From Dactylorhiza incarnata (lineage: Eukaryota > Streptophyta > Magnoliopsida > Asparagales > Orchidaceae): a stretch of 64,000 bases of DNA. A model generated the notes under the pieces. The model was not told the DNA's origin, searched no databases, and saw nothing but the letters and a program-made list of their open reading frames with translations. The first letter of the stretch is position 1; each line of letters opens with the position of its first letter. The stretch covers positions 2,356,001 to 2,420,000 of the forward strand of contig JAWHQI010000166.1 of NCBI GenBank assembly GCA_033032865.1, given 5' to 3'. The position numbers and the translations under genes were made by a program. Positions 10,958 through 52,211 of this stretch are shown here, piece by piece.

Positions 10958-11401
10958 TTTAGGTCAGTGATAGAGAGGAAGAAATGGTTGGACTGAGGAG
11001 CAAGAAGAATGAAAGATGCAGAGGTCGTGAAGGTTTCTAACTGAAGAGTCTATTTAAGTCAGGTGAAACGTCGAAACGAGGCACAATTCGATGCTTATTC
11101 GGTACAGCAGTGGATGTGACCGAAAATATTTTAGTATTGCCGCTCGTTTTCATGAAGTCGACGTTACGTCGAATGGAATTTGACGTGAGCGTCAATACTG
11201 TCTGGTTTGGGATGATAGGGTTTCCTATCAACGTATGCGTCGATTGGAGTTGATGCATGCATCAATTTCATTTATTGAACTGAGTTATCGACGGTGCGTC
11301 GATTCGAAGTCGACGTGACTTTATTTGACAGATTCTGGGTTTTCCTTGAGAAATTATTTCTTCCTATTCCTAAAGTTTTCTAAATTACTGTAGGACTAAT
11401 T
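10958..11401 (-). promoter_or_regulatory. Internal promoter region of S1 accessory gene with dyad cluster
   Basis: A TATA-like CTTAAATA on the minus strand (11058-11051) lies about 95 bp upstream of the ATG at 10957. Directly upstream (11065-11325) is a cluster of half-sites GCGTCGA and TCGACG in inverted pairs, for example around 11286-11325. The same motif fills U3 of the S1 LTR (14828-15065). The arrangement implies that the accessory gene has its own transcript. Confidence 0.6.
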
Positions 11402-27130: not shown

Positions 27131-27148
27131 AGTGGAGTATACGTCTCT

Positions 27149-28133
27149 ACCATGTTCTAGACTTCGATATCTAGTGCAATTAGAAAACAACGCATACGAG
27201 TTTTCCAATAGTTATAGTCCATGCCCGTGAATAAGGGTGGTCGACTAATCCCTTGACCCTCTATAAACACATGATCCTTTTGCGCCATTACTCCCGGTGG
27301 TAAAACCATTTTGGAGCAACCTCCCTCTGATACCAAGTGTTGGATCTTGCGGCGCCCTTAGAGGGGGGTGAATAAGGGCTAATATTTACTTTGAATATTT
27401 TCTAAAATATTAAGATAATTTTGCAATGATAAACAAGTAGATTTTTACACAACTTAAATAATCATTTAGAAAATCATGAGGAAATTGGAAATCAGATTTT
27501 ATTTTCATAAGTGATGAATACAAAGAATTATTGATCTTAATAAAGCATAAAATCAAGGCTATGATAGAAATGAACTTCTTTTCAATTTACCGGTCCTTCA
27601 ACCAAGGACCGGTCGGTTATAATATATCTCTTCCTAGATCTTGCTACTATCTTCCCCTTAGATCTCTCCACGATTTAGACGCTGCACACAAGGAGACAAT
27701 TTACTCCTAAGCCACACAAGGACCTAGACGCCATGCGCAAGGCGACGATTTCCTCCTAAGCCACACACAGACTTAGACGCCACACACAAGGCAGTGATCT
27801 CCTCCTTCGATTACAAAATGATAAGATAAAATACAAAATATAAATTAAGATATGAAACTCCCTAAATATGAAGCTCTGAAGATTGCGTTGAATCCTTGCA
27901 AAGATTGCCTGAGATGCTGCGCACGGACTGTCTCTTCTTCACTCTTGAACGTTCTTGCAAAAATGGGAGTTCTCAGAGTTCTGGACCTCTCTAGACGAAA
28001 TGCACTCGGGAATTGGTACTCCATATTGGTGTATATCCTTTTCTCCACAGAAATCGAGCCAATATATATTTTTCGATGTCGTCGACGACATCTAGTTGTC
28101 GTCCGCCGATGTTATCTCCTCCAGCTGCCACGT
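27149..28133 (-). mobile_element. A2: 5' end of a second A-family element (fragment)
   Basis: Minus strand: U3 (part), R and U5 of an A-type LTR (28133-27338), PBS TGGTATCAGAGG (27335-27324) and about 190 bp of gag start. It is broken at about 27149 on one side and by the S2 LTR at 28134 on the other. It preserves the perfect palindrome TGTCGTCGACGACA at about 28076-28089, which is mutated in the A 5' LTR. Confidence 0.88.
27338..28133 (-). repeat. A2 LTR, 3' ~800 bp
   Basis: Reverse complement of the last part of the A LTRs (30840-31462; 51420-52211). It ends in GATCCAACA on the minus strand and contains the CCGGTCCTT/AAGGACCGG hairpin. Confidence 0.9.
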
Positions 28134-30507: not shown

Positions 30508-31462
30508 TGTTGGAACATGTTTTTCAAACTCCTTGGTTTGCTAATAACAAATCCCGGGTGTGTTTGATCCTATTTTCTCTATGGTGTGTAGGTATAATAG
30601 GTATGCAACTATGCTAATTATTGTTTGGAGCTCAGAATGAATAGTCCAGAAAAATCACTGTCGTCTGCGACAGCTAGATATCGGAATCCGACATCCCACG
30701 TCTCAGCGGTTTCCACACGTTCTGCAAGTTCCATCCACTATCAGAATTCCGACAGTGATATCAGAATCCGATAGCCCACATCTCAGCAGAAACCATCACG
30801 TCGCGCACACACTTCGTTCTCATGGGACACGTGTCAGCTGGAGAAGATAACGTCGGCGGACGACAACTAGATGTAGTCGACGACATCAACAATTTATATA
30901 TTGACTCATTTTTCGTGAAGGAGTGGTTACACATCATTTTTGGAGTACCAATTCCCGAGTGTATTTCATTTATTCAACTTGTAATCCGTAGAGAAAATCG
31001 TTGCCTTGTGCGTGGCGTCTAAGTCCGTGTGTGGCTTAGGAGGAAATTGCCGCCTTGTGCGTGGCGTCTGGGTCCTTGTGAGGCTTAGGAGGAAATCACC
31101 GCCTTGTGTGCAACATCTAGATCTTGGAGAGATCTAGGGGGAGGCTAGTAGCAAGATCTAGGAAGAGATTCACTAATAGTCGCCCGGTCCTTGGTTGAAG
31201 GACCGGTAAATTGAAAAGAATTTTATTTTTATCATAGCCTTGATTTTAAGCTTTATTAAGATCGACAACCCTTTGTATTCATCACTTATGAAAATAAAAT
31301 TTGATTTCCAATTTCTCATGATTTTTTAAGTGCTTATTTAAGTTGTGTAAATATCTACTTGTTTATCTGTTAAAATTATCATAATATATTAGAAAAATTT
31401 CAAAGTAAATTTTAGCCCTTATTCACCCCCCCCCCCCTTTAAGGGCGCATCAAGATCCAACA
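30508..31462 (+). repeat. A 5' LTR (955 bp)
   Basis: Dyads CTGTCG-TCTG-CGACAG (30658-30673), TATCGGAATCCGACAT (30679-30694) and others to 30780. TGTAGTCGACGACA (30872-30885) sits 9 bp before TATATA at 30895. R/U5 hairpins follow, including CCGGTCCTT/AAGGACCGG (31184-31206). It ends in C12TTTAAGGGCG and GATCCAACA. It lacks 162 bp present in the 3' LTR. Confidence 0.93.
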
Positions 31463-31511: not shown

Positions 31512-33475
31512 ATGGCGCATAACGATCACGCATATGTAGAGGGCCAAGGGATTAGTCCACCACCTTTATTCACGGGCATGGACTATAACTATTGGAAAAC
31601 TCGTATGCGTTGTTTTCTAATTGCACTAGATCTCGAAGTCTGGAACATGGTAGAAATGAGTTATACTCCACCGACATTAGGCCTTGGTAGTGTAACAATG
31701 GATAAGCCTAAGGATAAATGGGATGATACTGATAAGTTACAATGTAAGAATAACGCAAAAGCAACGAATGCTTTATTTTGTGCGTTAGATAGAACTGAGT
31801 TTAATAGAGTATGTGCATGTGAAACTGCGTTTGAAATTTGGAAATTATTAGAAGTTACTCATGAAGGTACTTCACAGGTGAAGGACTCCAAACTGTTCCA
31901 ACTCGAGTCAGAATTTGAAAAGTTCAGAATGGAGGTTTATGAAGACGTCGATACGATGTACACCAGATTTAGCAAGATCGTCAACAATTCCAAAGTCCTT
32001 GAAAAGAATTTTTCAAATGGAGATTTAGTTAGAAAAATCTTAAGATCACTTCCCCCGAAGTTCAATCCGAAGGTGACCGCCATCTAGGAATCTCATGATC
32101 TTAAGACTCTTCAACTAGAGAGTTTAATTAGAAATCTGAAGACACGTGAAGTGGAACTGAAAATCCAACAACAAGAGTACAGTACGGAGCCAAGAAAGAA
32201 GGCATTGGCACTAAAGTCTAAGAAAGAAGTTGAGAGTGAGACTGATGGAGATGAGGAAGAAGATGAAGAAAGTTTGTTTGTGAGAAAATTTAAGAAGTTT
32301 ATGAGAAATCCGCAAGGGAGGAACACTTTTAAGAAGTACTTTAACAAGAAGGATTTTTCATATAAGAAGGGAAAAGGAAAGAGTGAAACTGAGGAAGATG
32401 ATGAGCATCCACCACCGGAATGTTATCATTATAAGAAAATTGGACATATAAGGAGCAAGTCCCAAAGTTTCTGAAAGAGCAAAAAGAGAAAGGGAAAAAT
32501 AAGAGAAACAAAAAGAAAGTTCTAAAGGCGGAAACATGGGCCGACACATCATCGGAAGGAGAAAATGATTCAAGTTCCGAAGGTCATGAAGAAGCTAATA
32601 TGTGCTTAATGGGAAAAAGCGACGCATCATCTGAGAACGATTGCAGTGTCCAGAGCGACACTGAGGTAACTCCCCCAACTTATGATGAGCTTTATGATGA
32701 ATTTCTCCGTACTTGTAAATTTTTTCAAAAATGTCTTAAAGATGTTGATAGTCTAAAATCTAAAAATAAAATTCTTTCAAAAGAAAACAAAAAACTAACA
32801 AATGAATTGAAAGTTCTTGAGAAGGAGAAGATTGCTTGTCAAGAGTGTGATCGCTCTTTGATAAGAATTAAAGAATTAGAACTAGAACTTTCTAAATCCA
32901 AATCCAAAGTAGATTTTCTTATCAAAGAAAAGAGGGATTTAGTAAGATCTTTGAAATCTTCTTATTCACAATTGGATAATAACAAGAAAGGATTTTCAAA
33001 TCGGGGAGTTATGTTAGTCAAAGAAAACACTGCTTTGAAAACTCAAGTCCATGATTTAAACTTGGCTATAAATAAGTTTGGAGTTGGTCGAAAATCACCG
33101 AATATGATATTAGCCAACCAATGCCATGGAACTGCTAAGTTTGGACTTGGATATGTTGCTGGAGGCTATCGGAAAACGACAGCCACTGTCGCCGATGATA
33201 GTGAAAATTCCAGTAAATGGAAAGTTAATAATGAAAATAAGTATAAAACTACTACTGCAACATCCTCTTCCAGTAATAGTCCACAGAAAACTTTGACAAG
33301 AGTATCATCTCTCTTTGTTGTATGTGCCAAATGTAATAGATTTGGTCACATCACGGACTCTTGCAGGAAGAAGGGATCATGTAATATTAAGCAAGTCTGG
33401 GTACCTAAGGCGTCCACCTATACTATGGGAGGAACTACTTGGGTAACCAGATCTTTACTCTCATCATCTTGTTAG
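31512..33475 (+). pseudogene. gag: A gag, decayed
   Basis: ATG 31512 is the start conserved in A2 and B; the upstream ATG used in B is ACG here. It holds a helical gag domain with WKTRMRCFLIALD, then TAG at 32085. A Lys/Glu-rich segment leads to a knuckle CYHYKKIGHIRSKSQ that has lost two cysteines and is followed by a 1-nt frameshift near 32460. The coiled-coil region (32600-33060) and second knuckle CAKCNRFGHITDSC (near 33335) come next. It ends at TAG 33473-33475, a stop also present at the same point in B, in frame with protease. Confidence 0.9.
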
Positions 33476-36569: not shown

Positions 36570-36870
36570 ATATCCAAATTAAATGTTAATAAAGACAAAA
36601 ACAACAACAACAACAAAATTATTTCAAAAATGTTAACTCCACACCATGTGATTAAAACATCATTAAAATTCATCAAATTCACACTACCTGAAAGTTTCAT
36701 ACAAAAACTAACTGAAGATAACTTCTCCATATAAGTTACAACACTGAAAACTGAAAGAAAATTACAACTTCACAGTCGTCAATGACATCTAGCTGTCGCC
36801 GACGACATCTACCAGAAGATCAATATCTGTAGAAAAACACTCAAAAATCTCCGCTCTCAGCACCACTACT
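36570..36870 (-). pseudogene. A: end of antisense accessory gene and dyad module
   Basis: 36774-36812 has the dyads GTCGTCAATGAC and CTGTCGCCGACGACATC-like. 36870-36841 continues, on the minus strand, the accessory frame interrupted by B at 47667 and ends at TGA (36843-36841). The rest is AT-rich spacer after the RNase H stop. Confidence 0.7.
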
Positions 36871-37018
36871 TGTTGGAGCATGCGTTTCTCACTCCTCCGG
36901 TTTGATAATAACAAAGTCCCGTTTGTATTTGATTCTATTTTTATCAATGGTGTGCAGATAACAGGTATGAGATGTTCAAATTTCTACTGGAGCTAAAATT
37001 GAATGTGGGAAAATTTCA

Positions 37019-37164
37019 CTGTCGGAAAATTCCGACAGCCACTGTCGCCCAGGCGACAGCTCGGCGGTTACAACAACTGCCCACGACTCCACCCACGACG
37101 GCACTCCAGCGGCAGTTTAGCGCTGTCGGAAAATTCCGACAGTCACTGTCGCCCAGGCGACAGT
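37019..37164 (+). promoter_or_regulatory. B LTR promoter: two IR-B/IR-A dyad modules upstream of TATA
   Basis: IR-B is CTGTCGGAAAATTCCGACAG (37019-37038 and 37124-37143). IR-A is CTGTCGCCCAGGCGACAG (37042-37059 and 37147-37164). In both modules the gap is exactly 3 bp. The second module ends 8 bp before TATAAATT (37173-37180). TGTCGG is a known high-affinity half-site for plant auxin response factors, so a host factor is one candidate reader. Confidence 0.85.
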
Positions 37165-37462
37165 AAATTTCTATAAATTGGTTCCTTTGGTTTGTGCATT
37201 CCAAGCTTTTGAGAATTCCAGTCCCTTCCTGAGTGCATACGAACCAGAGAGCTCCAGAACCTCCTCAACTCCCATTTGTGCAAAGAAGGATTGAAGATTG
37301 AAGACGAGATCGGGCGCGCTTCTACATCATCAATCATCTCGAGGCTTCAACAATCCGTTCAGAGATCTGATTTTCTAGGGAGTTGTTCTTTTCATATTGT
37401 ATTTTCATTCACATATTTTTCATTTTGTATTGGTAGAGAAATCGTCGTCTTGCGTGCGGCGT

Positions 37463-37649
37463 CTAAGTCCTTGCGCGGCTTAGGGGAAAATCGCTTCCTT
37501 GTGCGGAGCGTCCAAGTCCTTGCGTGGCTTGGTGGGAAATCGTGGCCTTGTGTGCTACGTCTAGATCTTGGGAAGATCTAGAGGATAGGCTTGGGCTTGG
37601 TCTTGGGAGAGACAAGCGATAGCCTTCCGATCCTTGGGAGAAGGATTGG
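37463..37649 (+). repeat. B LTR R/U5 hairpin series
   Basis: Stems CTAAG/CTTAG (37463-37483), CCAAG/CTTGG (37512-37532), CTAGATCTT/AAGATCTAG (37561-37581) and CCGATCCTT/AAGGATTGG (37627-37649). The first two are tandem variants with compensatory change; the last varies in A as CCGGTCCTT/AAGGACCGG. Confidence 0.8.
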
Positions 37650-37973
37650 TAAACCAAAATTGTAGAATTTTTAGTAAATATAATTGTGCCTTGATCTTAA
37701 GCATTGTTAAGATCATTTTTATTGTACTCAAATTTCATGATTAATATAATTATGTCTCTTTCTTTAATTATATATTTGATGGCATAATCTTTATCTTAAA
37801 AATTTGTGTTTTGGTTTAATACTAAAATTGCATTGGTTTGAAAGTGTTTAGAAGTAATTTTTTAGTAAAGTAAAATCTCTTTAAAAATTTACTAAGTAAA
37901 AATTTAATTTTTAAACACACCCTTATTCACCCCCCCCCCCCCCCCCTCTAAGGGCGTTATACGATCCAACAAG

Positions 37974-37985
37974 TGGTATCAGAGC
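37974..37985 (+). promoter_or_regulatory. B primer-binding site (initiator tRNA-Met)
   Basis: TGGTATCAGAGC, a perfect 12-nt match to the tRNA-iMet 3' end, two bases after the LTR. Confidence 0.93.
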
Positions 37986-37999
37986 GAGGTTACTCCAAA

Positions 38000-39952
38000 A
38001 TGGTTTTACCACCGGGAGTAATGGCGCACAACGATCACGCGTTCGTTGAGGGGCAAGGAATTAGTAGGCCACCACTTTTTACGGGCACAGACTATAATTA
38101 TTGGAAAACACGTATGCGTTGTTTTCTAATTGCGCTAGATATAGAAGTCTGGAATATGGTAGAATCTAGTTACACTTCTCCAACATTTGTTGTAGGAGAT
38201 GTAACTATGGATAAGCCCAAAGATAAGTGGGATGATAATGATAAATTAAGATGTAAGAACAATGCAAAAGCCATGAATGCTTTATTTTGCGCACTAGATC
38301 GCACTGAATTTAATAGAGTTTGTGCTTGTAATTCTGCATTTGAAATTTGGAATTTATTAGAAATCACTCATGAAGGTACTTCGCAGGTAAAGGACTCAAA
38401 GCTATTTCAACTGGAATCTGAATTTGAAAGGTTCAAAATGGAGGTAGATGAAGAGATTGATACAATGTACACACGGTTTACAAAAATCGTGAACGACTCA
38501 AAGGTGCTAGGAAAGGTGTTCTCAAATGGAGATTTGGTAAGGAAAATCTTAAGATCACTTCCCCCGAAGTTCAATCCTAAAGTGACTGTAATTTCTGAGT
38601 CACATGATCTTAAGACCTTACAATTGGAGAGCCTCATTGGGAACTTGAAAACTCATGAAGTTGAATTAAAAATTCAACAACAAGAGTATATGGAGCCAAG
38701 GAAGAAGGGATTGGCTCTAAGATCAAAGAAGGAAGAAACTAGTGATTCTGAGGAGGATGAAGAAGATGAGGAAAGTTTATTTGTTAAAAAATTTAGAAAA
38801 TTTATGAAAAATCCGGAGAGAAGGAATTCGTTTAAGAAGTATTTTAAGAAGGAGACCTTTAGGAAGAAAAAAGGAAAGGAGGGCGATGAGGAGGAAGAAA
38901 GACCGCCACCGGAGTGCTATCACTGCAAGAAGTTAGGACACATTCGAAGCAAGTGTCCAAAGTACTTGAAAGAACTTAAAGAAAAGAAACACAAAGGGTC
39001 GAAGAAGGTATTGAAGGCGGAAACCTGGGATGATACTACTTCTGAGGATGCAAGCAGTTCCGACTCAAGTAAAGAGGAGGAGGCCAACATATGCTTAATG
39101 GGAAAAAGCGTCATATCTGATGACGAATGCAGTGTCCAAAGCGACACTGAGGTAACTCCTCCAACCTATGATGAATTGTTTTCTGAATTTTTAAAGACTT
39201 GCAAATTTTTTGAAAAAAGTTTAAAAGATAATGATCTTCTAAAATCTGAAAATGGAATTTTACTTAAAGAAAACAAAAAATTGTTAAATGAAATTAAGAC
39301 TATTGGAAAAAGAGATATTTCTTGCCAAGAGTGTGATCACTTTTTGGGAAGAATTAAGGAACTTGAAGAATCTCTTTCCAAATCTCATTCTACAATAAAA
39401 GTACTTACTAAAAAGAATGAGATTTTAGAGAGAGATCTGAAATCTTCAATTTCCATAGTCCATGAGGGAAAGAAATCTTTTGAACGGAGATGCGTAAATC
39501 TAGTATCCGAGAATACAAAAATGAGACACCATATTCATGACTTAACACTAGCCATGAAAAAATTTGGAATGGGCCGAAGATCACTGGATATGATCTTAGG
39601 ATACCAATGCCATGGATCTGGAAGGTTTGGGCTCAGATACACATCTAGAAGCTGTCGCCCGGCGACAACCACTGTCGCCGGCGACAGTGAAAAGTCCAGA
39701 AAATTCACTTTTAAAAATTCTAAAATTAATGAAATATCAAATACTGCATCCTCATCCAGTAAAAGTCCAGAAAAGTTATACTCTTCTAAATACATTACTT
39801 GTGCCAAATGCAATAGATTTGGTCACACTACGGACTCTTGCTGGAAGGAAGGAAAAAGCAAAATTAAACAAATCTGGGTGCCTAAGGATTCTACCTATAC
39901 TATGGGTGGAACCACTTGGGTAACCAGATCTTTACTCACCTCTTCTTTCTAG
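38000..39952 (+). CDS. gag: B gag polyprotein
   Basis: Open frame of about 650 codons; ATG 38000 is first, and ATG 38021 is the one conserved in A and A2. It has the helical gag domain (WKTRMRCFLIALD region), a Lys/Glu-rich linker, a first zinc knuckle CYHCKKLGHIRSKC (near 38920), an acidic region and a long coiled coil (39160-39560). A segment whose DNA is the palindromic IR-A variant (39652-39687) precedes a second knuckle CAKCNRFGHTTDSC (near 39800). Structural protein for virus-like particles and RNA packaging. It ends at TAG 39950-39952 in the same frame as protease. Confidence 0.93.
   Translation: MVLPPGVMAHNDHAFVEGQGISRPPLFTGTDYNYWKTRMRCFLIALDIEVWNMVESSYTSPTFVVGDVTMDKPKDKWDDNDKLRCKNNAKAMNALFCALDRTEFNRVCACNSAFEIWNLLEITHEGTSQVKDSKLFQLESEFERFKMEVDEEIDTMYTRFTKIVNDSKVLGKVFSNGDLVRKILRSLPPKFNPKVTVISESHDLKTLQLESLIGNLKTHEVELKIQQQEYMEPRKKGLALRSKKEETSDSEEDEEDEESLFVKKFRKFMKNPERRNSFKKYFKKETFRKKKGKEGDEEEERPPPECYHCKKLGHIRSKCPKYLKELKEKKHKGSKKVLKAETWDDTTSEDASSSDSSKEEEANICLMGKSVISDDECSVQSDTEVTPPTYDELFSEFLKTCKFFEKSLKDNDLLKSENGILLKENKKLLNEIKTIGKRDISCQECDHFLGRIKELEESLSKSHSTIKVLTKKNEILERDLKSSISIVHEGKKSFERRCVNLVSENTKMRHHIHDLTLAMKKFGMGRRSLDMILGYQCHGSGRFGLRYTSRSCRPATTTVAGDSEKSRKFTFKNSKINEISNTASSSSKSPEKLYSSKYITCAKCNRFGHTTDSCWKEGKSKIKQIWVPKDSTYTMGGTTWVTRSLLTSSF
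39652..39687 (+). repeat. IR-A palindromes within B gag coding sequence
   Basis: CTGTCGCCGGCGACAG at 39672-39687 is a perfect 16-bp palindrome. A second copy at 39652-39667 is imperfect at its end. They are in the coding frame, just before the distal zinc knuckle. Confidence 0.9.
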
Positions 39953-41098
39953 GTGTGTTGGCAGGCTAAGGACAAAGAAGACGTGTGGTACTTGGACTCG
40001 GGTTGTTCAAAGCACATGACGGGCAATAAAGAGAAGTTCCTTAGCCTGGAGATGAAGAAAGGAGGAGTTGTTACATTCGGTGACAATGGAAAAGGAAAAA
40101 TCATCGGCATCGGTGTTGTGGGTAACGAAAATTTTTCAATTTCAAATGTTTTATTTGTAGAAGGATTAAAGCATAATTTGATTTCCATTAGTCAATTATG
40201 TGATAAGGGTTTGAATGTTTTATTTGAATCTTCTACAAATTTGTGCAAAATTATTAATTCCAAAACAAATGAAATTGTTTTTACCGCACCTAGATGTCAT
40301 AATGTATATATGATTAAATTTCTTGATTTTTCAAATTCTACTTTGAAATGTTTTCTATCAAAAAATGATGAATTAGATTTATGGCATAGGCGACTTGGAC
40401 ATGCTAGTGCCAAGTTAATTTCAAAACTTTCAAAAGATAAATTAATTAAAGGTTTACCTTTGCTAAATGGAAATTTATCTTCTTCACTATGTGTGCCTTG
40501 CCAAAAAGGAAAATTTTCAAAATCATCTTTCAAAAGTAAAAACATTATTTCTACCACTAGGCCACTTCAATTAATACATATGGACTTATTTGGGCCAATT
40601 GGAATTTCTAGCTTAGGAGGTAGAAAATACACATTTGTTTTGATTGATGATTATTCTCGTTTTTGTTGGACTTTATTTCTAACCTCTAAATTCGAAGCAT
40701 TTTCAGAATTTTCAAAATTATGTTTGCGTATTCAAAATGAATTGGAGTTAAAAATTAAACGCATACGATCGGATCATGGAGGAGAATTTGAAAATGAAAA
40801 GTTTATTTCTTTTTGTACGGTGTCAGGAATTAAACATGAATTTTCCGCTCCACGCACACCACAGCAAAATAGTGTAGTGGAAAGGAAAAATAGAACTCTT
40901 CAAGAGTTAGCCCGTACAATGTTATCTGAATTTAAATTACCAAAATCTTTTTGGGCTGAAGCGGTTAGCACGGCATGTTATGTAATTAATAGAGTTATGC
41001 TTCGCCCTATTTTAAAATTAACTCCTTATGAATTAATATTTAGTAAACAACCAAAGTTTCTTATTTCAAAGTTTTTGGTTGTAAATGTTTTATTTTGA
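39953..41098 (+). CDS. pol: B pol part 1: protease and integrase (frameshifted end)
   Basis: Same frame as gag, immediately after the UAG. Protease YLDSGCSKHMTGN; pre-integrase DLWHRRLGHASAKL with CVPCQKGKFSKSS; integrase Asp in HMDLFGP, Asp in RSDHGGEF, and Glu in QQNSVVERKN (the usual Gly after Asn is Ser). The frame is lost near 41056 by an apparent 1-nt deletion and stops at 41098. The same protein continues in another frame from 41095. The deletion removes the integrase C-terminal region from the reading frame, so B is probably not autonomous now. Confidence 0.93.
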   Translation: MCWQAKDKEDVWYLDSGCSKHMTGNKEKFLSLEMKKGGVVTFGDNGKGKIIGIGVVGNENFSISNVLFVEGLKHNLISISQLCDKGLNVLFESSTNLCKIINSKTNEIVFTAPRCHNVYMIKFLDFSNSTLKCFLSKNDELDLWHRRLGHASAKLISKLSKDKLIKGLPLLNGNLSSSLCVPCQKGKFSKSSFKSKNIISTTRPLQLIHMDLFGPIGISSLGGRKYTFVLIDDYSRFCWTLFLTSKFEAFSEFSKLCLRIQNELELKIKRIRSDHGGEFENEKFISFCTVSGIKHEFSAPRTPQQNSVVERKNRTLQELARTMLSEFKLPKSFWAEAVSTACYVINRVMLRPILKLTPYELIFSKQPKFLISKFLVVNVLF

Positions 41099-41588
41099 AT
41101 TCTAAAGATTCCTTAGGAAAATTTGATGAAAAATGTGATGAAGGTATTTTTATTGGCTATTCTTCAACTAGTAAAGCTTATAGAATTTTTAATAAAAGAA
41201 CAAAAATAGTTGAAGAATCTATTCATGTTAGGTTTGATGAGTTTGCTTCATGTGTAGAAAAGAAAATTACAGGAAAAGAAGATGAACTCCTTCCCACGAT
41301 GGAGAATGATGAAGAAGAACTTGGAGAAAATGAAGAAGAAAAAGGAGAAGAAAGAGAAGAAGAAAGAGGAGAAGAAAATAGAGAAGAAGAAGAAAGAGAA
41401 GGATATGTGCCTCCAAGTGAATTGAGATTCTCAAAGGATCATCCAAAGGAGCTTATCATTGGAGATCCGCAAAAAGGGGTTAGTACTCGTTCATCACTCA
41501 TGTTTTATTTTCAAACCTTTGTTTTGTTTCTGAAATAGAACCAAAAGATGTTTCCACCGCTTTAAATGATGAATTTTAGTTTTTAGCT
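41095..41588 (+). pseudogene. pol: B pol part 2: integrase C-terminal region and acidic linker
   Basis: 41095-41538 continues with the conserved EKCDEGIFIGYSS motif and a long Glu-rich linker, then runs into a second frameshift near 41505. The following segment up to the reverse transcriptase has a TAG at 41578 where a Trp codon is expected (A has TGG). Confidence 0.88.
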
Positions 41589-43067
41589 ATGAATGAAGAA
41601 CTTAATCAATTTGAACGTAATAAGGTTTGGAATCTTGTAGAACGACCCAAAAATCATCCTGTAGTTGGTGTTAAGTGGATTTTTAAAAATAAAATGGATA
41701 ATGAATCTAGAATTGTTAGAAATAAAGCCAGATTAGTTGCAAAAGGTTATGCACAAATTGAAGGGGTAGATTTTGATGAAACTTTTGCACCCGTAGCAAG
41801 ATTAGAAGCGGTTCGAATATTTCTTGCATTTGCTTGTTTTAAAAGATTTAAATTATATCAAATGGATGTCAAAACCGCATTTTTAAACGGGTATATAAAA
41901 GAAGAAGTTTATGTAGAACAACCCCCTGGCTTTATAAATGAGAAATATCCAAATTATGTTTATAAATTAGATAAAGCACTTTATGGATTAAAACAAGCGC
42001 CTCGTGCTTGGTACGATCGATTAACTCAATATTTGTTAAAGCACGATTATAAAATAGGAAGTGCTGATTCTACACTCTTCATTAAGCAAATTGATCATGA
42101 TTTAGTTATTTTACAAATTTATGTTGATGATATTATTTTTGGAGCCACTAATGAAGAGTTGTGTAATGAAGTAGTTGAAATTATGAAAAATGAATTTGAA
42201 ATGAGTATGGTTGGAGAACTTTCATATTTTTTAGGTTTTCAAATTACACAAAAACATGATGGTATTTTTATATGTCAAACCAAATATATTCATGATATGT
42301 TAAAAAGATTTGGATTTGAAAATCTTAAGCATGCAAACACTCCTATGAGTTCTTCACTAAAATTAGGAAAAGATGAAAGTGGTGTTTCAATTGAACAAAC
42401 TCTTTATAGAAGTATGATAGGGTCTTTATTGTATTTAACCGCATCTAGACCTGATATTATGTTTGTCGTTTGTTTATGTGCTAGATTTCAAGCTAATCCT
42501 AAAGAGTCACATTTAAAAGCGGTGAAACGTATCTTTAGATATCTCATAGGCACATCAAAATTAGGTTTATGGTATCCTCATAATGATTCTTTTATTTTAC
42601 ATGGTTTTTCGGATTCGGATTATGCGGGATGTTCCTTAGATAGGAAAAGCACTAGTGGCACTTGTCACTTTATCGGCCCTTCACTTATTTCATGGTCGAG
42701 TAGGAAACAGAATTCTGTTGCCCTCTCAACTACGGAGGCCGAATATATTGCACTAGGTAGTTGTTGTGCCCAAGCTCTTTGGATGTCACAAACATTAGAA
42801 GATTTTGGCATGCAACAAAGTAGTGTAGAATTAATGTGTGACAATAAAAGTGCTATAGACTTAACTAACAATCCCGTATTACATTCTAGATCTAAGCATA
42901 TAGATGTCCGACATCATTTTATAAGGGATCATATTAAGAAGGGTAATATAAAAATCAACTTTATAGGCACAGAAAATCAAATAGCAGATATATTCACTAA
43001 GCCGTTACCGGATTCCCGTTTTTCTATGCTTAGGCTAGAATTGGGAATTCTAGACATTTCACAATGA
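41589..43067 (+). CDS. pol: B pol part 3: reverse transcriptase and RNase H
   Basis: 492 codons with no break. The reverse transcriptase has [31 protein letters not shown] and the catalytic YVDD at residues 178-181. The connection [15 protein letters not shown] follows. RNase H starts at [11 protein letters not shown] and ends [13 protein letters not shown] and [13 protein letters not shown]. The motif set is that of the SIRE lineage. All catalytic Asp residues seen are intact, implying recent activity or preservation. Confidence 0.95.
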
Positions 43068-43362
43068 ATATATCACTATTTAAAGCCTATAAAATTAAAA
43101 AAAAAAATTATTATCACAAAACATAAACAATGTACAAAGAAAAAGCTAAGATCTTAAAAATCAAAACATAAAATTTCAAAAGACTTAACAAAAATTCAAC
43201 ATCATTAATATTCATCAATATTGTTCAAATAAAAATAGTAGAAAAAACTTAAGGATCAAGTTCATTAAACAAAAGCAGAAATCTAAAGAAGTTCACTGTC
43301 GCCCAGGCGACAGTGGATGTCGGAAATTTCCGACATCGCCCAGCAGCAGCAGCAACATAAAA
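43068..43362 (+). promoter_or_regulatory. B spacer with IR-A/IR-B module downstream of the antisense gene
   Basis: AT-rich spacer after pol. IR-A at 43296-43313, a 3-bp gap, then the perfect 20-bp palindrome ATGTCGGAAATTTCCGACAT at 43317-43336. The antisense gene stops 27 bp further on. Confidence 0.85.
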
Positions 43363-44478
43363 CTACTCTGAATCTTCATAACCAGCCCCGCTGCTCTCTG
43401 GACAATCTTCTGGAGGTCCTCGTCTCACGGCTTTACCACGGCGAGTCCGCCTCACCGATTCGCGTGGCGGTTCTTCGTCCGGAACTTGCCATTCGGCCTC
43501 TTCCTCCGGAGTTGGCTTTAACTTCAGACCCTTGACGAGAAACTTCATAAATTTCTGCATTCGACTACGGTCCTTCTTCACTTCCCTCTTGTGATCCTCT
43601 AATGAATCACGCAAATCATCAATGGACTCTCATAGTGATCCTGCACTAGAAATGGTCGGCTCTCTAATCTCAATCCCCGGATGAGCTTTTCTCTGCGGCT
43701 TCTTCACCTTCATTGAACCCGTATAATATATTTCCGGATAACAATCATCCAAATAAGCACCTTGCACTATCCATCCATACTTCTTATAGAGTACACGCTG
43801 TATTACCGCCCCCATTGGCAGCGTATGAACCTTCACCCATCTTGGATGCTTTAATCTATACGCATACCTAATCTGGGAGAGTATGAAGTCCGCCACATCA
43901 AAAAGCTCATCCTCCATAATATAGTATGTAAAGAGGGTCAACTGAGCCGTAATACTTCTTGTGTCTCCACTCTTCAACATCACTGAATTCCTTAATATAT
44001 CTTGGACTAAGAAAGCATCCGGAGTAAGTGACGTAACTTCAGTGGTAAGAGTCTTCTTTTGATTCCCATGTAAACTCATGTTTACAAGGGTCCAATCTCT
44101 ATCCTTTCGATAATTCTCCACTATATCAGGCATATTCTCACTCATCACTAGTCCGAATTCCTCTCGTAGATCAACATGTGTTATTTCCACATGTTGACCT
44201 TGGATCCTTGATCTCACTCCTCCATCCAATTCAGTGAAATTTGGGTCTTCCAAATGGTTATAAAATTCACGAATGAAAAAGGAAGAAAACCCCTCTGGTG
44301 TGATTATTGAAATTATACCTGCGTTCGCAAGCCGATCATAGATATGATCGTGCTTTGGCGACTCAAATTCCACATACTTCGCTATTCCAACAATAGCCTT
44401 CTCCACCCCAGGAAAAACTTGATATGAACTACGTGCATCTTCCGAAGTACTCTTTCGAGCTTTGGAACTGGAAGCCAT
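43363..44478 (-). pseudogene. B antisense accessory gene, one premature TGA
   Basis: Start ATG 44478 is supported by the equivalent MASSS(K/R)AR start in A at 48770 and by a splice acceptor one base upstream. 372 codons with a single in-frame TGA at 43632-43630, where A has an arginine codon. The protein has a Ser-rich start, then a folded region (~30-270) with a FYNHLEDPNF motif and a helix-rich second half (LTPDAFLVQDILRN, LPMGAVIQRVLYKKYGW). A basic coiled segment (DHKREVKKDR) and an Arg-rich, acidic-ended tail follow. The layout matches the S1 protein. It resembles the 'putative plant transposon protein' domain family; function unknown. It lies head-to-head against the 3' LTR and antisense to gag-pol. 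Confidence 0.85.
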
Positions 44479-44479
44479 T

Positions 44480-44998
44480 CTGCAAATAACATACAAAAAT
44501 TTTTGATTAAACATGGTATCATATTGTGCACTGGCACACTGTCGCCCAGGCGACAGTGACTGTCGGAAATTTCCGACAGCTCACCAAGTGATTTCTCTCA
44601 AAATTTTTTTTTATCCTTCCAGATCTACTCAAAATCAATGTTATTTCAACATCACGTTTTAAAAAAATTTTATCAACATATTCTACAAATCCTTTACTAT
44701 TCATCATCTTCAACCCTCTACACTAAACTAGATCTACAAAAACCCTTTAGAGAATGAACAAATGGAACCCTTCATCACAAAAATCACAAAATCAAAAATT
44801 TTAACAAAGATCCAACAAGATCCACTTGTTTTTAAACTAGATATACATTTTCTTTTTTAAACAAAACTAAACTTCAAAAACCTACATCATTCATCAAACA
44901 TCAACATGAAAACTACATTTTCCTTCTTCTCTACTTTCAAAATAAAAAATCCAACAAAAAAAAATAGAGTCAAAACCATAAAAAGCAAACTCCCATAC
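44480..44998 (-). other. Predicted 5'UTR intron of B antisense gene, with dyad module
   Basis: Minus strand donor CTAAG|GTATGG (GT at 44998-44997) and acceptor TTATTTGCAG|A (AG at 44481-44480), placing the acceptor one base before the ATG. The intron contains IR-A 44539-44556, a 3-bp gap and the perfect palindrome CTGTCGGAAATTTCCGACAG at 44560-44579. Confidence 0.6.
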
Positions 44999-45094
44999 CT
45001 TAGATCTTGAGATATCGCCGATTTCCGACAGCCCTCTCTCTCTCAACAGTCCAGAAAAATGAAGCACAATAGGGTTTGACTTGGTCTGATGCCC

Positions 45095-45150
45095 TATTTA
45101 TACTTTTGGCTGTCGCCCAGGCGACAGTGGGTGTCAGAATTTTCCGACAG
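45095..45150 (-). promoter_or_regulatory. B antisense promoter: TATA plus dyad module
   Basis: Minus strand TATAAATA (45102-45095). Seven bp upstream is IR-A (45127-45110), then 3 bp, then an imperfect IR-B (45150-45131). Order, gap and distance to TATA match the LTR promoter at 37124-37180. A CT-rich leader follows downstream to the predicted donor at 44998. Confidence 0.75.
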
Positions 45151-46466
45151 CTCCAAATGTTCTAAGAAATCAATGTTGGGTCCCTTTGATGATCTACAAT
45201 AATTATATGTCATTATTAATGCTTCACCTCATGACTTGATGACAAACCATGTGCTATTTATTTTAAAAAAAATGACTTACATGTTTATATGATTTCATTT
45301 CCAAGCTATCATCGTATTGACACTTCTACTTAGTTGTTTAGACCATTGGAAATTGTTTTCGCATGCCTCTAAGTATGAGAAATTGTTTATCTATCATAAT
45401 GAACTATCACGTTCACTTCTTTTGATCAATACATATGTGTACTTCTTTAATATATACATGGATCATATTTGCTTTAACATAATAAAATAACACTTCTTAA
45501 ATACAACTTTCACCCTTGATTTGTTAGCACAACAAAATATACACAATCTTTTGCGATTCAAGTGAATTCGGAGATCCTTGGTCATTTAAAAAAAATAATA
45601 TATCAATATATCAAAATTAAGATATCACAACATCTGTGATAAAAAAAATTAAAATAAAGACAAGGATACTCCACCAAGCACTACTTACCCTCCTGATAAG
45701 TCTTAATGAGCATTGTGAGGTTAAGCACCTTGGACAGAATTGTTAAGTGTCTTGTGCAAAAGAAACATGGTTTTCTATTCATCTTGTGCTATATCTTCAA
45801 AGTCAAAGTTGCCTTTATGTGCTTTTATTATGTTCTACATTTCAATGATCATGTAAATTAAATAGCTTCATATGTTTGATCTAAGTATCACATGTACACA
45901 TCATTATGTTAAATAAATATTCATCTCATGAGAATTGGACCGAAAATATTCCATAATTCTATACACTATTGTGTCTTTCTATGATACTTTCAAATGATCT
46001 TACTCATGTTTAAGTTATTTTCTTTCATTACTTCATATGGCTATACCGTCACTTCATGAGTTTATTCATACTATGACATATTCCTATTATTTCATGGACT
46101 TCAATCATTTCCACAAAAAAAAAGTGCTTCCGCTTACTCTTTCTTTCTATATCCTATGTCCATTCCATCAAGAACTACTCTTTTATCTAATATTAACTTT
46201 TGCTGATATCAAAAGGGGGAGAATTAAAAGTATAAAAAGAACAATCACAAATCTATTACACCTAAATATCCCACCTACACAATACATCATATATTTAGGG
46301 GGAGCATATATGTAGGGGGAGCTTTCATTTAGGGGGAGCTTTCATCTAAAGGTAGATCATTTATTTTCAAGAAATATATATCATGTTAATTTTGTGCACA
46401 CATCAAAGGTTAAAATCAACAATCTAAATAGACATGATTTCTTTTTATACGGATTTGTTATTATCA
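45151..46466 (+). other. B 3' noncoding region with a block conserved in A and extra PPT-like runs
   Basis: No gene. 45668-45760 is a block similar to 50080-50170 in A. Runs of AGGGGGAG appear near 46210, 46296, 46312 and 46331 ahead of the true PPT. Confidence 0.75.
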
Positions 46467-46478
46467 AAAGGGGGAGAT
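46467..46478 (+). promoter_or_regulatory. B polypurine tract
   Basis: AAAAGGGGGAGAT immediately before the TG of the 3' LTR. Confidence 0.9.
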
Positions 46479-47666
46479 TGTTAGAGCATGCGTTTCGCAC
46501 TCCTCCGGTTTGATAAAAACAAAGTCCTGTTTGTATTTGATTCTATTTTTATCAATGGTGTGCAGATAACAGGTATGAGATGTTCAAATTTCCACTGGAG
46601 CTAAAATTGAATGTGGGAAAATTTCACTGTCGGAAAATTCCGACAGCCACTGTCGCCCAGGCGACAGCTCGGCGGTTACAACAACTGCCCACGACTCCAC
46701 CCACGACCGGCAGTGTTGCGCTGTCGGAAATCCGACATCGATGTCGCTCAGGCGACAGCTCGGCGGTTACAACAACTGCCCACGACTCCACCCACGACGG
46801 CACTCCAGCGGCAGTTTAGCGCTGTCGGAAAATTCCGACAGTCACTGTCGCCCAGGCGACAGTAAATTTCTATAAATTGGTTCCTTTGGTTCGTGCATTC
46901 CAAGCTTTTGAGAAGTCCAGTCCCTTCCTGAGTGCATACGAACCAGAGAGCTCCAGAACCTCCTCAACTCCCATTTGTGCAAAGAAGGATTGAAGATTGA
47001 AGACGAGATCGGGCGCGCTTCTACATCATCAATCATCTCGAGGCTTCAACAATCCGTTCAGAGATCTGATTTTCTAGGGAGTTGTTCTTTTCATATTGTA
47101 TTTTCATTCACATATTTTTCATTTTGTATTGGTAGAGAAATCGTCGTCTTGCGTGCGGCGTCTAAGTCCTTGCGCGGCTTAGGGGAAAATCGCTTCCTTG
47201 TGCGGAGCGTCCAAGTCCTTGCGTGGCTTGGTGGGAAATCGTGGCCTTGTGTGCTACGTCTAGATCTTGGGAAGATCTAGAGGATAGGCTTGGGCTTGGT
47301 CTTGGGAGATACAAGCGATAGCCTTCCGATCCTTGGGAGAAGGATTGGTAAACCAAAATTGTAGAATTTTTAGTAAATATAATTGTGCCTTGATCTTAAG
47401 CATTGTTAAGATCATTTTTATTGTACTCAAATTTCATGATTAATATAATTATGTCTCTTTCTTTAATTATATATTTGATGGAATAATCTTTATCTTAGAA
47501 ATTTGTGTTTTGGTTTAATACTAAAATTGCATTGGTTTGAAAGTGTTTAGAAGTAATTTTTTAGTAAAGTAAAATCTCTTTAAAAAATTACTAAGTAAAA
47601 ATTTAATTTTTAAACACACCCTTATTCACCCCCCCCCCCCCTCTAAGGGCGTAATACGATCCAACA
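46479..47666 (+). repeat. B 3' LTR (1,188 bp)
   Basis: Matches the 5' LTR except for an extra 91-bp tandem unit at about 46668-46758, which adds a third dyad module, a C run of 13 instead of 17, and about 12 substitutions. The net length difference of 87 bp is fully explained by +91 and -4. Confidence 0.95.
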
Positions 47667-48770: not shown

Positions 48771-49440
48771 CTCTTTACTCGACCAACCTTCACATCAAAA
48801 ACCAAAATTTTCTTTTTATATTACCGACACTTCGATTGAGCATTTCATTCCCCCAAATCTAAAAACAAAAAAAAAACAACAAAAAAACAATACAAAACCC
48901 TACAGAAAAAGACTCCCAGATCTGCCTTCCTCGGTTTCGAGACTTTTTAGGTTCTTTTTGCTGTCGTCGACGACAGCTAGCTGTCGTTTTCTGACATCAT
49001 CAAAACTTAAATAAGTTTCTAGACTTCATACACAACATGAAATCTAGTATTTTCTTAGATCTACACATATGTCTCATTTTTTCTCAAAACTTCACAAAAC
49101 CAAGTTTTTATTTCAAAAATTATCACCAAAATTTATCAAAAACCCATACATTATATTAGATCTAGGATTTTCTTTCTAAAACTTCACAAAACAAAAAGGA
49201 ATCCTTGAATCAAGTTTTACTTTCTAAAATTTCACCAAAAATTAACAAAAATCCATAAACTTACCTCAAAAATTGGATTTCCGGCGACTTACGACAGCAG
49301 CTCTCGCACAAACCCTACAAGAAATGCCTCCCAGATCTGCTTTCTCTCGGATTCGCGATCTTTTATAGTTTCATCGATGTCGTCGACGACACCTTGATGT
49401 CATTTTCTGACATCCTAAAAAGGTCAAATTTCTTTTAATT
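48771..49440 (-). promoter_or_regulatory. A antisense promoter region, apparently duplicated
   Basis: Distal copy: minus strand TATAAAA (49367-49361) with the perfect palindrome TGTCGTCGACGACA (49378-49391) 10 bp upstream and GATGTCA-TTTTC-TGACATC (49396-49414) beyond it. A donor-like GAG|GTAAGT lies near 49262-49255. Proximal copy: the perfect palindrome CTGTCGTCGACGACAG (48961-48976) and a second dyad to about 49000, with a degraded TATA (CTAAAAAG) near 48942. Both are followed by similar CCCAGATCTGC leader sequence, so the promoter and first exon look tandemly duplicated. Confidence 0.65.
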
Positions 49441-51094: not shown

Positions 51095-52211
51095 TATTGG
51101 AACATGTTTTCCGAACTCCTTAGTTTGCTAATAACAAATCCCGGGTGTGTTTGATCCTATTTTCTCTATGGTGTGCAGGTATAATTGGTATGCAACTATG
51201 CTAATTATTGTTTGGAGCTCATAATGAATAGTCTAGAAAAATCACTGTCATCTGCGACAGATAGATATCGGAACTTGACATCCCACGTCTCAGTGGTTTC
51301 CACACGTTCTGCAAGTTCCATCCACTATCGGAATTTCGACAGTGATATTGGAATCCGACAGCCCACGTCTCAGCGGAAACGGTCACGTCGCGCGCACACT
51401 TCGTTCGCATGGGACACGTGTCAGATGGAGGAGATAACATCGGCGGACGACAACTAGATGTAGTCGACGACATCAATAATTTATATATTGACTCATTTTT
51501 CGTGGAGGAGAGGTTACACATCATTTTTGGAGTACCAATTCCCGAGTGCTTTTCATCAGAGAGCTCCAGAAATTCGAGAACTTCCATTTCGACAAGATCG
51601 TTCAAGATCGAAGGAGAGACGGTTCATGCGTGGAATCTCAGGCAACCTTTGCAAGCATTCAACGTCATTTCCAGATTCGTGGATTTAGGGAGTTCTCATA
51701 TCTTAATCTCTATTTTGTATTTCATATATTCATCTTGTAATCCGTAGAGAAAATCGTCGCCTTGTGTGGCGTCTAAGTCCGTGTGTGGCTTAGGAGGAAA
51801 TCTCCTCCTCGTGAGTGGCGTATGGGCCCTTGTGAGGCTTATGAGGAAATCGCCGCCTTGTGTGCAGCGTCTAGATCGTGGAGAGATCTAGGGGGAGGCT
51901 AGTAGCAAGATCTAGGAAGAGATTCGCTAATAGTCGGACGGTCCTTGGTTGAAGGACCGTTAAATTGAAAAGAATTTTATTTTTATCATAGCCTTGATTT
52001 TAAGCTTTATTAAGATCGATAACCCTTTGTATTCATCACTTGTGAAAATAAAATTTGATTTCCAATTTCTCATGATTTTCTAAGTGCTTATTTAAGTTGT
52101 GTAAAAATCTACTTGTTTATCCGTTAAAATTATCATAATATATTAGAAAAATTTCAAAGTAAATTTTAGCCCTTATTCACCCCCCCTCTAAGGGCGCCGC
52201 AAGATCCAACA
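51095..52211 (+). repeat. A 3' LTR (1,117 bp)
   Basis: Opens TATTGGAAC where the 5' copy has TGTTGGAAC, so the terminal G has mutated. It retains 162 bp lost from the 5' LTR. It ends C7TCTAAGGGCG and GATCCAACA, followed by TSD GGTCT. Confidence 0.94.

What the first reader, a model, noticed from the sequence alone, without database searches (positions are those of the whole stretch)
37019..45150. Sense LTR promoter and antisense gene promoter of element B share one composite operator-like module
Two palindromes, IR-A (CTGTCGCCCAGGCGACAG) and IR-B (CTGTCGGAAAATTCCGACAG or variants), always occur as a pair with exactly 3 bp between them. Pairs are at 37019-37059, 37124-37164, 43296-43336, 44539-44579 and 45110-45150. 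IR-A lies 8 bp upstream of the LTR TATA and 7 bp upstream of the antisense TATA, with the same module order relative to transcription. This looks like a bidirectional control circuit: one factor could set both gag-pol and accessory gene output. Candidate readers are the TE's own accessory protein, by loose analogy to VANC proteins of VANDAL transposons that recognise short TE motifs. A second candidate is a host auxin response factor, since TGTCGG inverted repeats are their preferred site.
Basis: partly seen in the sequence, partly recalled or inferred. Interest (0 to 1): 0.92.

Follow-up and report, generated by a model that had tools for sequence, protein, structure and literature searches.

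The report
Shared palindrome switch in plant retrotransposon
A plant jumping gene carries the same pair of palindromic DNA sites just upstream of both its main promoter and the promoter of a small backward-running gene, and a related family carries a different palindrome at the same two places, which suggests that one factor, perhaps made by the jumping gene itself, controls both.

Summary
Element B is a young Copia (Sirevirus-like) retrotransposon nested in a relative, A. All seven exact IR-A copies in the window have an IR-B 3 bp away; along transcription both promoters read IR-B, 3 bp, IR-A, 7-8 bp, TATA. The host genome holds 10,437 exact IR-A (reversed control 0). In 30 close copies found by the antisense protein, blind to palindromes, the promoter IR-A is in 29; the TATA gap is 7 bp in 46 of 46 antisense promoters and 8 bp in 13 of 13 LTRs detected. 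The antisense gene looks real: dN/dS 0.12, own TATA, inferred leader intron, weak PF20167 match. The A family has another core (TGTCGTCGACGACA-like) at both promoters: the site has co-diverged.

Palindromes in Sirevirus LTRs and near their third gene were published in 2010; antisense accessory genes are known in Gypsy elements. New here: an identifiable antisense promoter carrying the LTR's palindromes, fixed geometry, matched change between families. Best reading: the antisense protein, or less likely a host factor, reads both promoters, as VANC or foamy-virus Tas do. No binding or transcription was shown. Two gene-less derivatives have IR-B, not IR-A, next to TATA. Auxin response factors fit poorly.

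The parts
36871..37971 (+). 5' LTR of element B (TSD CTACT)
   Evidence: 12 differences in 1097 aligned positions to the 3' LTR
37019..37059 (+). LTR module 1: IR-B 37019-37038, 3 bp, IR-A 37042-37059
37123..37163 (+). LTR module 2, TATA-proximal: IR-B 37123-37142, 3 bp, IR-A 37146-37163
37172..37179 (+). LTR TATA box (TATAAATT), 8 bp after IR-A
   Evidence: 8-bp gap in 13 of 13 IR-A/TATA pairs detected in B-family LTRs; exceptions with IR-B next to TATA in two gene-less elements
39652..39687 (+). palindrome pair inside the gag frame; its sequence type differs between subfamilies
37952..43067 (+). gag-pol of element B (Retrotran_gag_2, rve, RVT_2), in several open pieces in this copy
43296..43336 (+). 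pol-end module, 3' of the antisense gene: IR-A, 3 bp, IR-B
   Evidence: IR-A in 29 of 30 blind copies
43630..44478 (-). antisense accessory ORF, weak PF20167 Transposase_32 match; 282 aa here, 371 aa in 8 of 9 other copies with an open frame (346 aa in the ninth)
   Evidence: dN/dS about 0.12
44480..44998 (-). inferred 5' UTR intron of the antisense gene (GT donor at 44998, AG acceptor at 44480-44481)
   Evidence: GT donor in 18 of 20 aligned copies (L022 has GC, L021 is interrupted by an insertion); no RNA evidence
44539..44579 (-). intron module: IR-A 44539-44556, 3 bp, IR-B 44560-44579
   Evidence: IR-A in 30 of 30 blind copies
45095..45102 (-). TATA box of the antisense promoter (TATAAATA)
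   Evidence: TATTTATA in 28 of 29 blind copies and a gap in 1
45110..45150 (-). antisense promoter module: IR-A 45110-45127 (7 bp from TATA), 3 bp, IR-B 45131-45150
   Evidence: IR-A in 29 of 30 blind copies; 7-bp gap in 46 of 46 detected
46479..47666 (+). 3' LTR of element B
46627..46667 (+). 3' LTR module 1
46721..46758 (+). 3' LTR degenerate extra pair (gap 2 bp), not seen in the 5' LTR
46822..46862 (+). 3' LTR TATA-proximal module
30871..30886 (+). element A, 5' LTR TATA-proximal palindrome (ATGTAGTCGACGACAT), 8 bp before TATATA
51458..51473 (+). element A, 3' LTR TATA-proximal palindrome
36793..36808 (+). element A, pol-end palindrome
48961..48976 (-). element A, antisense leader palindrome copy 1 (CTGTCGTCGACGACAG)
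49377..49392 (-). element A, antisense promoter palindrome (TGTCGTCGACGACA core), 9 bp from TATAAAAG
28076..28091 (-). element C (truncated A-type LTR, minus strand), TATA-proximal palindrome ATGTCGTCGACGACAT, 7 bp from TATATA

Best explanation
The palindrome pairs are a family-specific operator shared by the element's two promoters. One sequence-specific factor binds them as a dyad, just upstream of the TATA boxes of the sense LTR promoter (gag-pol) and of the antisense promoter, and so sets both outputs together. The most likely reader is the antisense gene's own PF20167-like protein, making an autoregulatory loop of the foamy-virus Tas kind or a VANC-like anti-silencing system; the extra modules in the leader intron, gag and linker fit the latter better than a simple promoter switch. 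Shown: modules, fixed geometry in the copies examined, purifying selection on the antisense protein, conservation of the sites, matched difference of palindrome between two families. Inferred: that a protein binds, that it is the element's own, and the sign of its effect.
For: (1) Same order and spacing at both promoters: IR-B, 3 bp, IR-A, then 8 bp (LTR, 13 of 13 detected) or 7 bp (antisense, 46 of 46 detected) to TATA; both were detected in 12 loci, which had been chosen through IR-A hits. (2) Found blind to palindromes, by the antisense protein (close copies, 98-100% identical): promoter IR-A in 29 of 30, intron IR-A in 30 of 30, pol-end IR-A in 29 of 30. (3) Sites change less than their surroundings: blind set of 29, pairwise difference 0.008 (intron IR-A) and 0.028 (promoter IR-A) against 0.098 background; in 14 diverged copies 0.115 and 0.040 against 0.247 (biased choice). 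(4) Matched difference: the A family has a TCGTCGACGA-type core at both LTR and antisense promoters where B has CGCCCAGGCG; 9 of 16 A-family antisense genes on the listed contigs have an exact TGTCGTCGACGACA 375-830 bp from the matched protein piece on the antisense-leader side, chance expectation 0.0015. (5) IR-A keeps its CCCAGG centre on the element's plus strand at all 7 sites while the module order flips with transcription, so the antisense module is not simply an inverted copy of the LTR module. (6) The antisense protein is under purifying selection (dN/dS about 0.12); 126 of the 138 scored copies have no stop inside the match (my count).
Against: No binding or transcription data. The protein has no recognised DNA-binding domain; its Pfam match is below the curated cut-off, no solved relative was found, and both AlphaFold runs failed (mean pLDDT 32.8). 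In the A family the partner palindrome (IR-B position) is not the same at the two promoters, its LTR site is asymmetric (TGTAG) in 5 of 5 LTR pieces read and in both LTRs of the window copy, and only 2 of the 6 full antisense sites compared stand next to a true TATAAAAG, the other 4 next to GATAAAAG/A. One of 6 A-family antisense promoters has only a half-site (L085); 7 of 16 genes have no exact site there. Two non-autonomous elements (L037, L039/L046) have an IR-B-like palindrome, not IR-A, next to the LTR TATA. Elements without the gene keep LTR palindromes, which a host reader would also explain. IR-B is less conserved than IR-A in the blind set, though not at the intron site of the diverged set (0.090 against 0.115).
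Confidence: 0.47

Rival explanations
1. A host transcription factor (auxin response factor, or another factor that reads TGTCG half-sites) binds the palindromes and drives both promoters; the element merely displays host sites.
For: The TGTCG half-site persists in both families while inner bases and spacing change, and IR-B can stand in for IR-A next to TATA in two gene-less elements. TGTCGG is the preferred ARF element (passages of PMC10690724). Elements without the antisense gene keep LTR palindromes, as do OPIE-2, PREM-2, Osr8 and Tnd-1, listed without ENV in PMC2829016 Table 3.
Against: ARFs prefer inverted repeats spaced 7-8; these are 6, 4 and 2. The A-family LTR site destroys one TGTC core. 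Arms are symmetric over 8-10 bp, beyond a TGTCNN site. A conserved host reader does not predict that the inner bases differ together at both promoters of one family.
Confidence: 0.3
2. No dedicated reader: the copies are kept alike by template switching or gene conversion within the element, and palindromes persist for structural reasons (hairpins, small-RNA or methylation targets).
For: All 7 IR-A copies have the same strand orientation. Two loci (L018, L019) carry a hybrid pol-end/promoter module with the antisense gene removed between them, so modules do recombine. Maize Sirevirus LTR palindromes are small-RNA hotspots (passages of PMC5311732).
Against: Homogenisation does not place sites at a fixed distance from two unrelated TATA boxes, nor flip module order with transcription. 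Flanks of LTR and antisense sites look unlike beyond the palindromes and TATA (by eye). LTR and antisense modules lie upstream of the TATA, so they are outside the 5' ends of the inferred mRNAs.
Confidence: 0.15
3. The palindromes act mainly as silencing or insulator sites recognised by host chromatin factors, and the antisense transcript serves to make dsRNA against the element rather than a protein.
For: Antisense transcription as a source of dsRNA has been proposed for plant antisense ORFs (PMC7264820). The sites contain CpG.
Against: The antisense reading frame is under purifying selection (dN/dS about 0.12) and has no stop inside the match in 126 of 138 scored copies (my count), so a protein seems to be selected.
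Confidence: 0.06

Closest known systems
Sirevirus repeated motifs (RMs), Bousios et al. 2010, PMC2829016
   Same: Element-specific palindromic boxes upstream of the LTR TATA, and extra copies before the third (ENV) gene in the 9 RM-bearing elements that have one, none in the linker of the 4 without; an internal promoter for that gene was hypothesised (sections 9 and 20 read, passages elsewhere).
   Different: There one motif per element, with a CGG-CCG core in 12 of 13, and no internal promoter could be identified. Here two palindromes in a fixed composite, abutting an identifiable TATA on the antisense strand, plus sites in an inferred leader intron and in gag.
VANC / VANDAL anti-silencing (PMC5735166)
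   Same: Family-specific short motifs spread over the element's own non-coding regions, including introns of its genes; motif and protein change together (passages).
   Different: VANDALs are DNA transposons (recalled) and their motifs are not palindromic; no protein homology was tested here; binding is shown there and only inferred here.
Foamy virus Tas with LTR and internal promoter
   Same: One element-encoded factor acts on the LTR promoter and on an internal promoter (starts of abstracts of PMC8670036 and PMC4929722 in a search listing).
   Different: Its internal promoter runs in the sense direction (recalled); no homology is claimed.
Antisense accessory ORFs of plant Gypsy elements (Grande gene23, RIRE2, Retand TRP28)
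   Same: Antisense ORF between pol and 3' LTR; own promoter and nuclear protein for Grande; a regulatory role was proposed (PMC7264820, parts 1 and 2 of 3 read; PMC11963269 passages).
   Different: Copia/Sirevirus-like rather than Gypsy; PF20167-like rather than TRP28; the parts that I saw report no operator shared with the LTR.
Athila ORF with Transposase_32 (PF20167), sunflower, PMC11728184
   Same: Same Pfam family in an additional retrotransposon ORF (passages).
   Different: Sense-strand ORF of a Gypsy element.

Membership tests
Sirevirus genus (Copia) | Copia gag and pol domains in the order gag, integrase, reverse transcriptase | tested here: met
   Retrotran_gag_2, rve, RVT_2 in order
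Sirevirus genus (Copia) | multiple polypurine tracts before the 3' LTR, poly-C signal near the LTR end, conserved LTR/PBS junction | tested here: met
   GGGGGA at 46215, 46298, 46315, 46332, 46470; poly-C at about 37930-37946 and the CCAACA/PBS junction read by eye; criteria from passages of PMC2829016
Sirevirus genus (Copia) | placement within Sireviruses by reverse transcriptase phylogeny | not tested
   no tree built; no named Sirevirus sequence fetched
Sirevirus RM boxes | repeated palindromes in the upper half of the LTR, upstream of a TATA | tested here: met
Sirevirus RM boxes | CGG-CCG core signature (12 of the 13 published RMs) | tested here: inconclusive
   IR-B has TCGG/CCGA; IR-A has CGCC/GGCG and lacks it
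Sirevirus RM boxes | extra copies at the 5' side of the third gene | tested here: met
   promoter and intron modules of the antisense gene; strand of ENV in the published elements not checked
VANC-like anti-silencing system | element-encoded protein binds the element's motifs and removes silencing marks | not testable with these tools
   no binding or methylation data
VANC-like anti-silencing system | family-specific motifs in the element's non-coding regions including introns | tested here: met
   the intron itself is inferred; one pair also lies in gag coding sequence
VANC protein family | sequence homology to VANC | not tested
   Pfam scan gave only PF20167 below its cut-off and three hits at E 0.06-0.63; VANC itself was not compared
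PF20167 Transposase_32 | score above the Pfam gathering cut-off (45 bits) | tested here: not met
   31.6 and 34.9 bits, E 1.9e-7 and 1.8e-8: related, not a full member by Pfam's rule
ARF binding site (IR7/8) | TGTCNN inverted repeat spaced 7 or 8 | tested here: not met
   spacings 6, 4 and 2; criterion from passages of PMC10690724

The most novel reading that the evidence does not exclude
Sirevirus-type Copia elements encode, on the antisense strand, a DNA-binding regulator or anti-silencer that reads family-specific palindromes at its own promoter, in its own leader intron and at the LTR promoter; reader and sites co-evolve, so each family runs a private circuit, and relatives without the gene live off it through LTR palindromes of the matching kind.
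Probability: 0.4. Interest if true: 0.85.

Novelty: new variant of a known kind. Interest (0 to 1): 0.63.

Why it matters
What Sirevirus LTR palindromes do, and how the third gene is expressed, were left open in 2010 (PMC2829016). Here the third gene has an identifiable promoter, on the other strand, carrying the LTR's palindromes at a fixed distance from TATA, and a second family makes the same arrangement with a different palindrome. That turns both questions into one direct binding test, and would give a retrotransposon counterpart of VANC: a selfish element steering only its own kind.

Tried and rejected
Structure of the antisense protein: single-sequence and three-sequence AlphaFold gave mean pLDDT 32.8 both times, so no fold search was run. 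Protein database: 247 candidates, none at E <= 1e-3. Viral contigs: 3 pattern matches, none a relative. Solved structures: none at E <= 1. NCBIfam: none at E <= 0.1. Literature: searches (open-licence PMC only) listed 0, 1, 1, 5 and 4 papers; of these I opened PMC11728184, PMC11963269 and PMC7264820, in part, and saw no antisense PF20167 gene in a Sirevirus; the others were seen as listings only. The 2016 maize Sirevirus palindrome paper is not held and is known to me only through PMC5311732. ARF as reader was considered and disfavoured. The idea that the LTR module was copied inverted into the antisense promoter is disfavoured by the unflipped IR-A centre. Symmetric compensatory changes exist but are few (5 of 171 cells at intron IR-A, 1 at promoter IR-A, 0 at both IR-B), so they are not used as evidence. 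In some searches the columns labelled TATA and TATA spacer were misplaced by two bases; only one search is used for TATA conservation. One search filtered out most copies and was superseded. From L021 was dropped before the count (insertion in the leader) and 5 near-identical copies were set aside. The LTR form of the A-family palindrome could not be counted genome-wide.

For that last fact I lowered the best explanation from 0.50 to 0.47 and the novel case from 0.42 to 0.40, and raised the first rival from 0.28 to 0.30 and the second from 0.14 to 0.15.
Full report
WHAT IS THERE. Element B (36871-47666) has LTRs that differ at 12 of 1097 aligned positions and a CTACT target duplication. It carries Copia gag, integrase and reverse transcriptase, several polypurine tracts and a poly-C stretch near the LTR end, which are Sirevirus hallmarks by the passages of PMC2829016 seen. 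It sits in or next to the 3' end of the antisense gene of an older relative, element A (LTRs 30508-31462 and 51095-52211, TSD GGTCT, 58 of 948 differences). A truncated A-type LTR, element C, lies at about 27146-28200 on the minus strand.

THE PALINDROMES. IR-A occurs exactly 7 times in the window; each copy has an IR-B 3 bp away. Along the strand of transcription, the LTR promoter is IR-B, 3 bp, IR-A, 8 bp, TATAAATT, and the antisense promoter is IR-B, 3 bp, IR-A, 7 bp, TATAAATA. Further pairs lie after pol (43296-43336), in what looks like a 5' UTR intron of the antisense gene (44539-44579; GT donor in 18 of 20 aligned copies), and inside the gag frame (39652-39687). At the gag site another B subfamily has a different palindrome of the same half-site; in the seven pieces read the frame has 0 or 1 stop over about 200 codons.

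NOT CHANCE AND NOT ONE COPY. The host genome (G000, 3.27 Gb) holds 5299 + 5138 exact IR-A matches against 0 for the reversed pattern. To avoid choosing copies by their palindromes I searched with the antisense protein: 7,934 first-look candidates, 138 scored, 30 loci cut, 98-100% identical and one of them the window's own. IR-A (up to 4 mismatches) is present at the intron site in 30 of 30, at the promoter in 29 of 30 (missing in L051) and after pol in 29 of 30 (missing in L067); both misses are deletions. TATTTATA stands 15 bp from the start of IR-A in all 29 promoters, and IR-B is recognisable at 3 bp at all sites found but one (L056, pol-end). One search was given 53 of the 88 loci held (23 fetched earlier plus these 30; overlapping pieces, gag pieces, L011, L017-L019, L031 and the A-family pieces were left out). 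With detection as TATA plus IR-A (up to 5 mismatches) 4-12 bp apart, it found 46 antisense promoters, all with a 7-bp gap, and 13 LTR promoters, all with an 8-bp gap; 12 loci had both. The 30 blind loci do not reach the LTR. Of the 10 other loci without an LTR detection, 5 end before it, 2 (L036, L042) showed no TATA of the searched forms, and 3 (L037, L039, L046: two non-autonomous elements) have an IR-B-like palindrome 8-9 bp from TATA instead of IR-A. Three further LTRs looked at (L018, L019, L045) have IR-A-like sites at 8 bp.

CONSERVATION. In the blind set without the window copy (29 loci) pairwise difference is 0.008 for intron IR-A, 0.028 for promoter IR-A, about 0.071 for both IR-B sites, 0 for TATA and 0.098 for the rest of the leader; 0.6% and 7.1% of 522 18-bp background windows are as conserved as intron and promoter IR-A. 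In 14 copies more than 5% apart, of 19 aligned, which had been chosen through IR-A hits and so are biased, intron IR-A is 0.115, promoter IR-A 0.040, intron IR-B 0.090, promoter IR-B 0.113, background 0.247. IR-A is constrained at both sites; IR-B moderately.

THE ANTISENSE GENE. The window copy reads 282 aa. Among L001-L022 the script found nine distinct copies with an open frame starting MAS: eight of 371 aa and one of 346 aa (L015), ending in a heptad-like stretch, a basic run and an acidic tail (these labels are my reading). NG86 dN/dS over 10 copies is 0.12 (42 of 45 pairs, those with dS above 0.03; dS up to 0.35 against the window copy). Pfam gives PF20167 Transposase_32, below the curated cut-off. 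The A-family protein is 71% identical over 102 residues and 51% over 147.

THE KEY TEST: A SECOND FAMILY. If one reader serves both promoters, a family with another palindrome should have it at both. Element A and its kin do, with exceptions. In the window, A's antisense leader has CTGTCGTCGACGACAG and ATGTCGTCGACGACAC, its LTRs have ATGTAGTCGACGACAT and element C's LTR has ATGTCGTCGACGACAT. From 150 scored A-family antisense genes I took 6 by open frame and identity spread (97-85%), blind to palindromes, and read small pieces. Antisense promoters: exact TGTCGTCGACGACA in 3 of 6 (L077, L081, L083), one mismatch in 2 (L079, L087), only a half-site in 1 (L085). LTRs: one of the 6 pieces missed the LTR (L080); of the other 5, 4 have TGTAGTCGACGACA and 1 a further change (L086); the gap to TATATA is 8 bp in 5 of 5 and in both window LTRs of A, 7 bp in element C. 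For the window copy and the five full sites the antisense gap is 9 bp in 5 and 10 bp in 1, but the box is TATAAAAG in only 2 and GATAAAAG/A in 4 (read by eye). The exact A-type core occurs 390 times in the genome against 4 for the reversed control. Of 16 A-family antisense genes on contigs covered by that listing, 9 have it 375-830 bp from the matched piece on the antisense-leader side, and 2 at LTR distance; 0.0015 expected in the leader intervals. Against: 7 of 16 have no exact site there, the partner palindrome of the A family differs between LTR and antisense promoter, and its LTR site is asymmetric.

DERIVATIVES. L018 and L019 lack the antisense gene: sequence after pol runs up to one module and continues with the sequence beyond the antisense promoter, as if the two same-orientation modules had recombined and removed the gene. 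L008 also lacks it, with another breakpoint. Three non-autonomous elements (L043/L037, L044/L042, L039/L046) keep B-like LTRs with TGTCG palindromes of both kinds and about 75 bp of gag; no match to either antisense gene was found in them and no palindrome in the internal stretches read. L030 has gag sequence next to the antisense gene with no pol between, and keeps the leader and LTR modules.

MECHANISM. A dyad-symmetric site 7-8 bp upstream of two unrelated TATA boxes, with order tied to the direction of transcription, points to DNA reading by a protein. The centre of IR-A keeps one strand orientation at every site while the module order flips, so the antisense module is not just an inverted LTR module. 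The LTR and antisense sites lie outside the 5' ends of the inferred transcripts, which weakens RNA-hairpin readings. The joint difference of the inner bases at both promoters, the selection on the protein and the sites within its own gene favour the protein; the survival of palindromes in elements without the gene is neutral, and the IR-B site next to TATA in two of them shows that the TATA-proximal palindrome need not be IR-A. Activation, repression and anti-silencing are not separated by these data; sites in intron, linker and gag lean towards VANC-like anti-silencing.

PRIOR ART. PMC2829016 (sections 9 and 20 read, passages elsewhere) already shows element-specific palindromes in Sirevirus LTRs and before the third gene, present in the linker of 9 elements with that gene and absent from the linker of the 4 without it, and states that an internal promoter could not be conclusively identified. 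PMC7264820 (parts 1-2 of 3) and PMC11963269 (passages) describe antisense accessory ORFs in Gypsy elements with proposed regulatory roles. PMC5735166 (passages) gives the VANC precedent. The combination reported here was not found in the searches named under Tried and rejected.

Noticed in passing
window 8144-8583: Another LTR element (repeat copies at 1-300 and 8946-9245) carries four near-identical palindromes CACGCCCCAGGTCACGGGCGTG in its 3' part: palindrome arrays are not confined to the Sirevirus-like elements here.
   Followed up: no
window 11158-11303, 11865-11887, 14830-15064: Several palindromes built on TCGACG/CGTCGA in a third region.
   Followed up: no
L018, L019 (and L008 with another breakpoint): Copies in which the antisense gene is missing; in L018 and L019 exactly between the pol-end and promoter modules, leaving one hybrid module: same-orientation modules may promote loss of the gene.
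   Followed up: partly
L043/L037, L044/L042, L039/L046: Non-autonomous elements whose roughly 4 kb of internal sequence has no match to the A or B reference pieces, with B-like LTRs but an A-like region before the 3' LTR; in L037 and L039/L046 an IR-B-like palindrome stands next to the LTR TATA.
   Followed up: partly
L030: Derivative with gag sequence joined to the antisense gene, no pol between, modules kept.
   Followed up: no
window 39652-39687 and 33166-33182; L023-L029: Palindrome pair inside gag that changes type between subfamilies: possible DNA-level constraint within coding sequence.
   Followed up: partly
window 46721-46758: 3' LTR has an extra degenerate module not seen in the 5' LTR: LTR module number varies even within one element.
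   Followed up: no
window 55467: One isolated exact TGTCG...CGACA site outside elements A, B and C.
   Followed up: no
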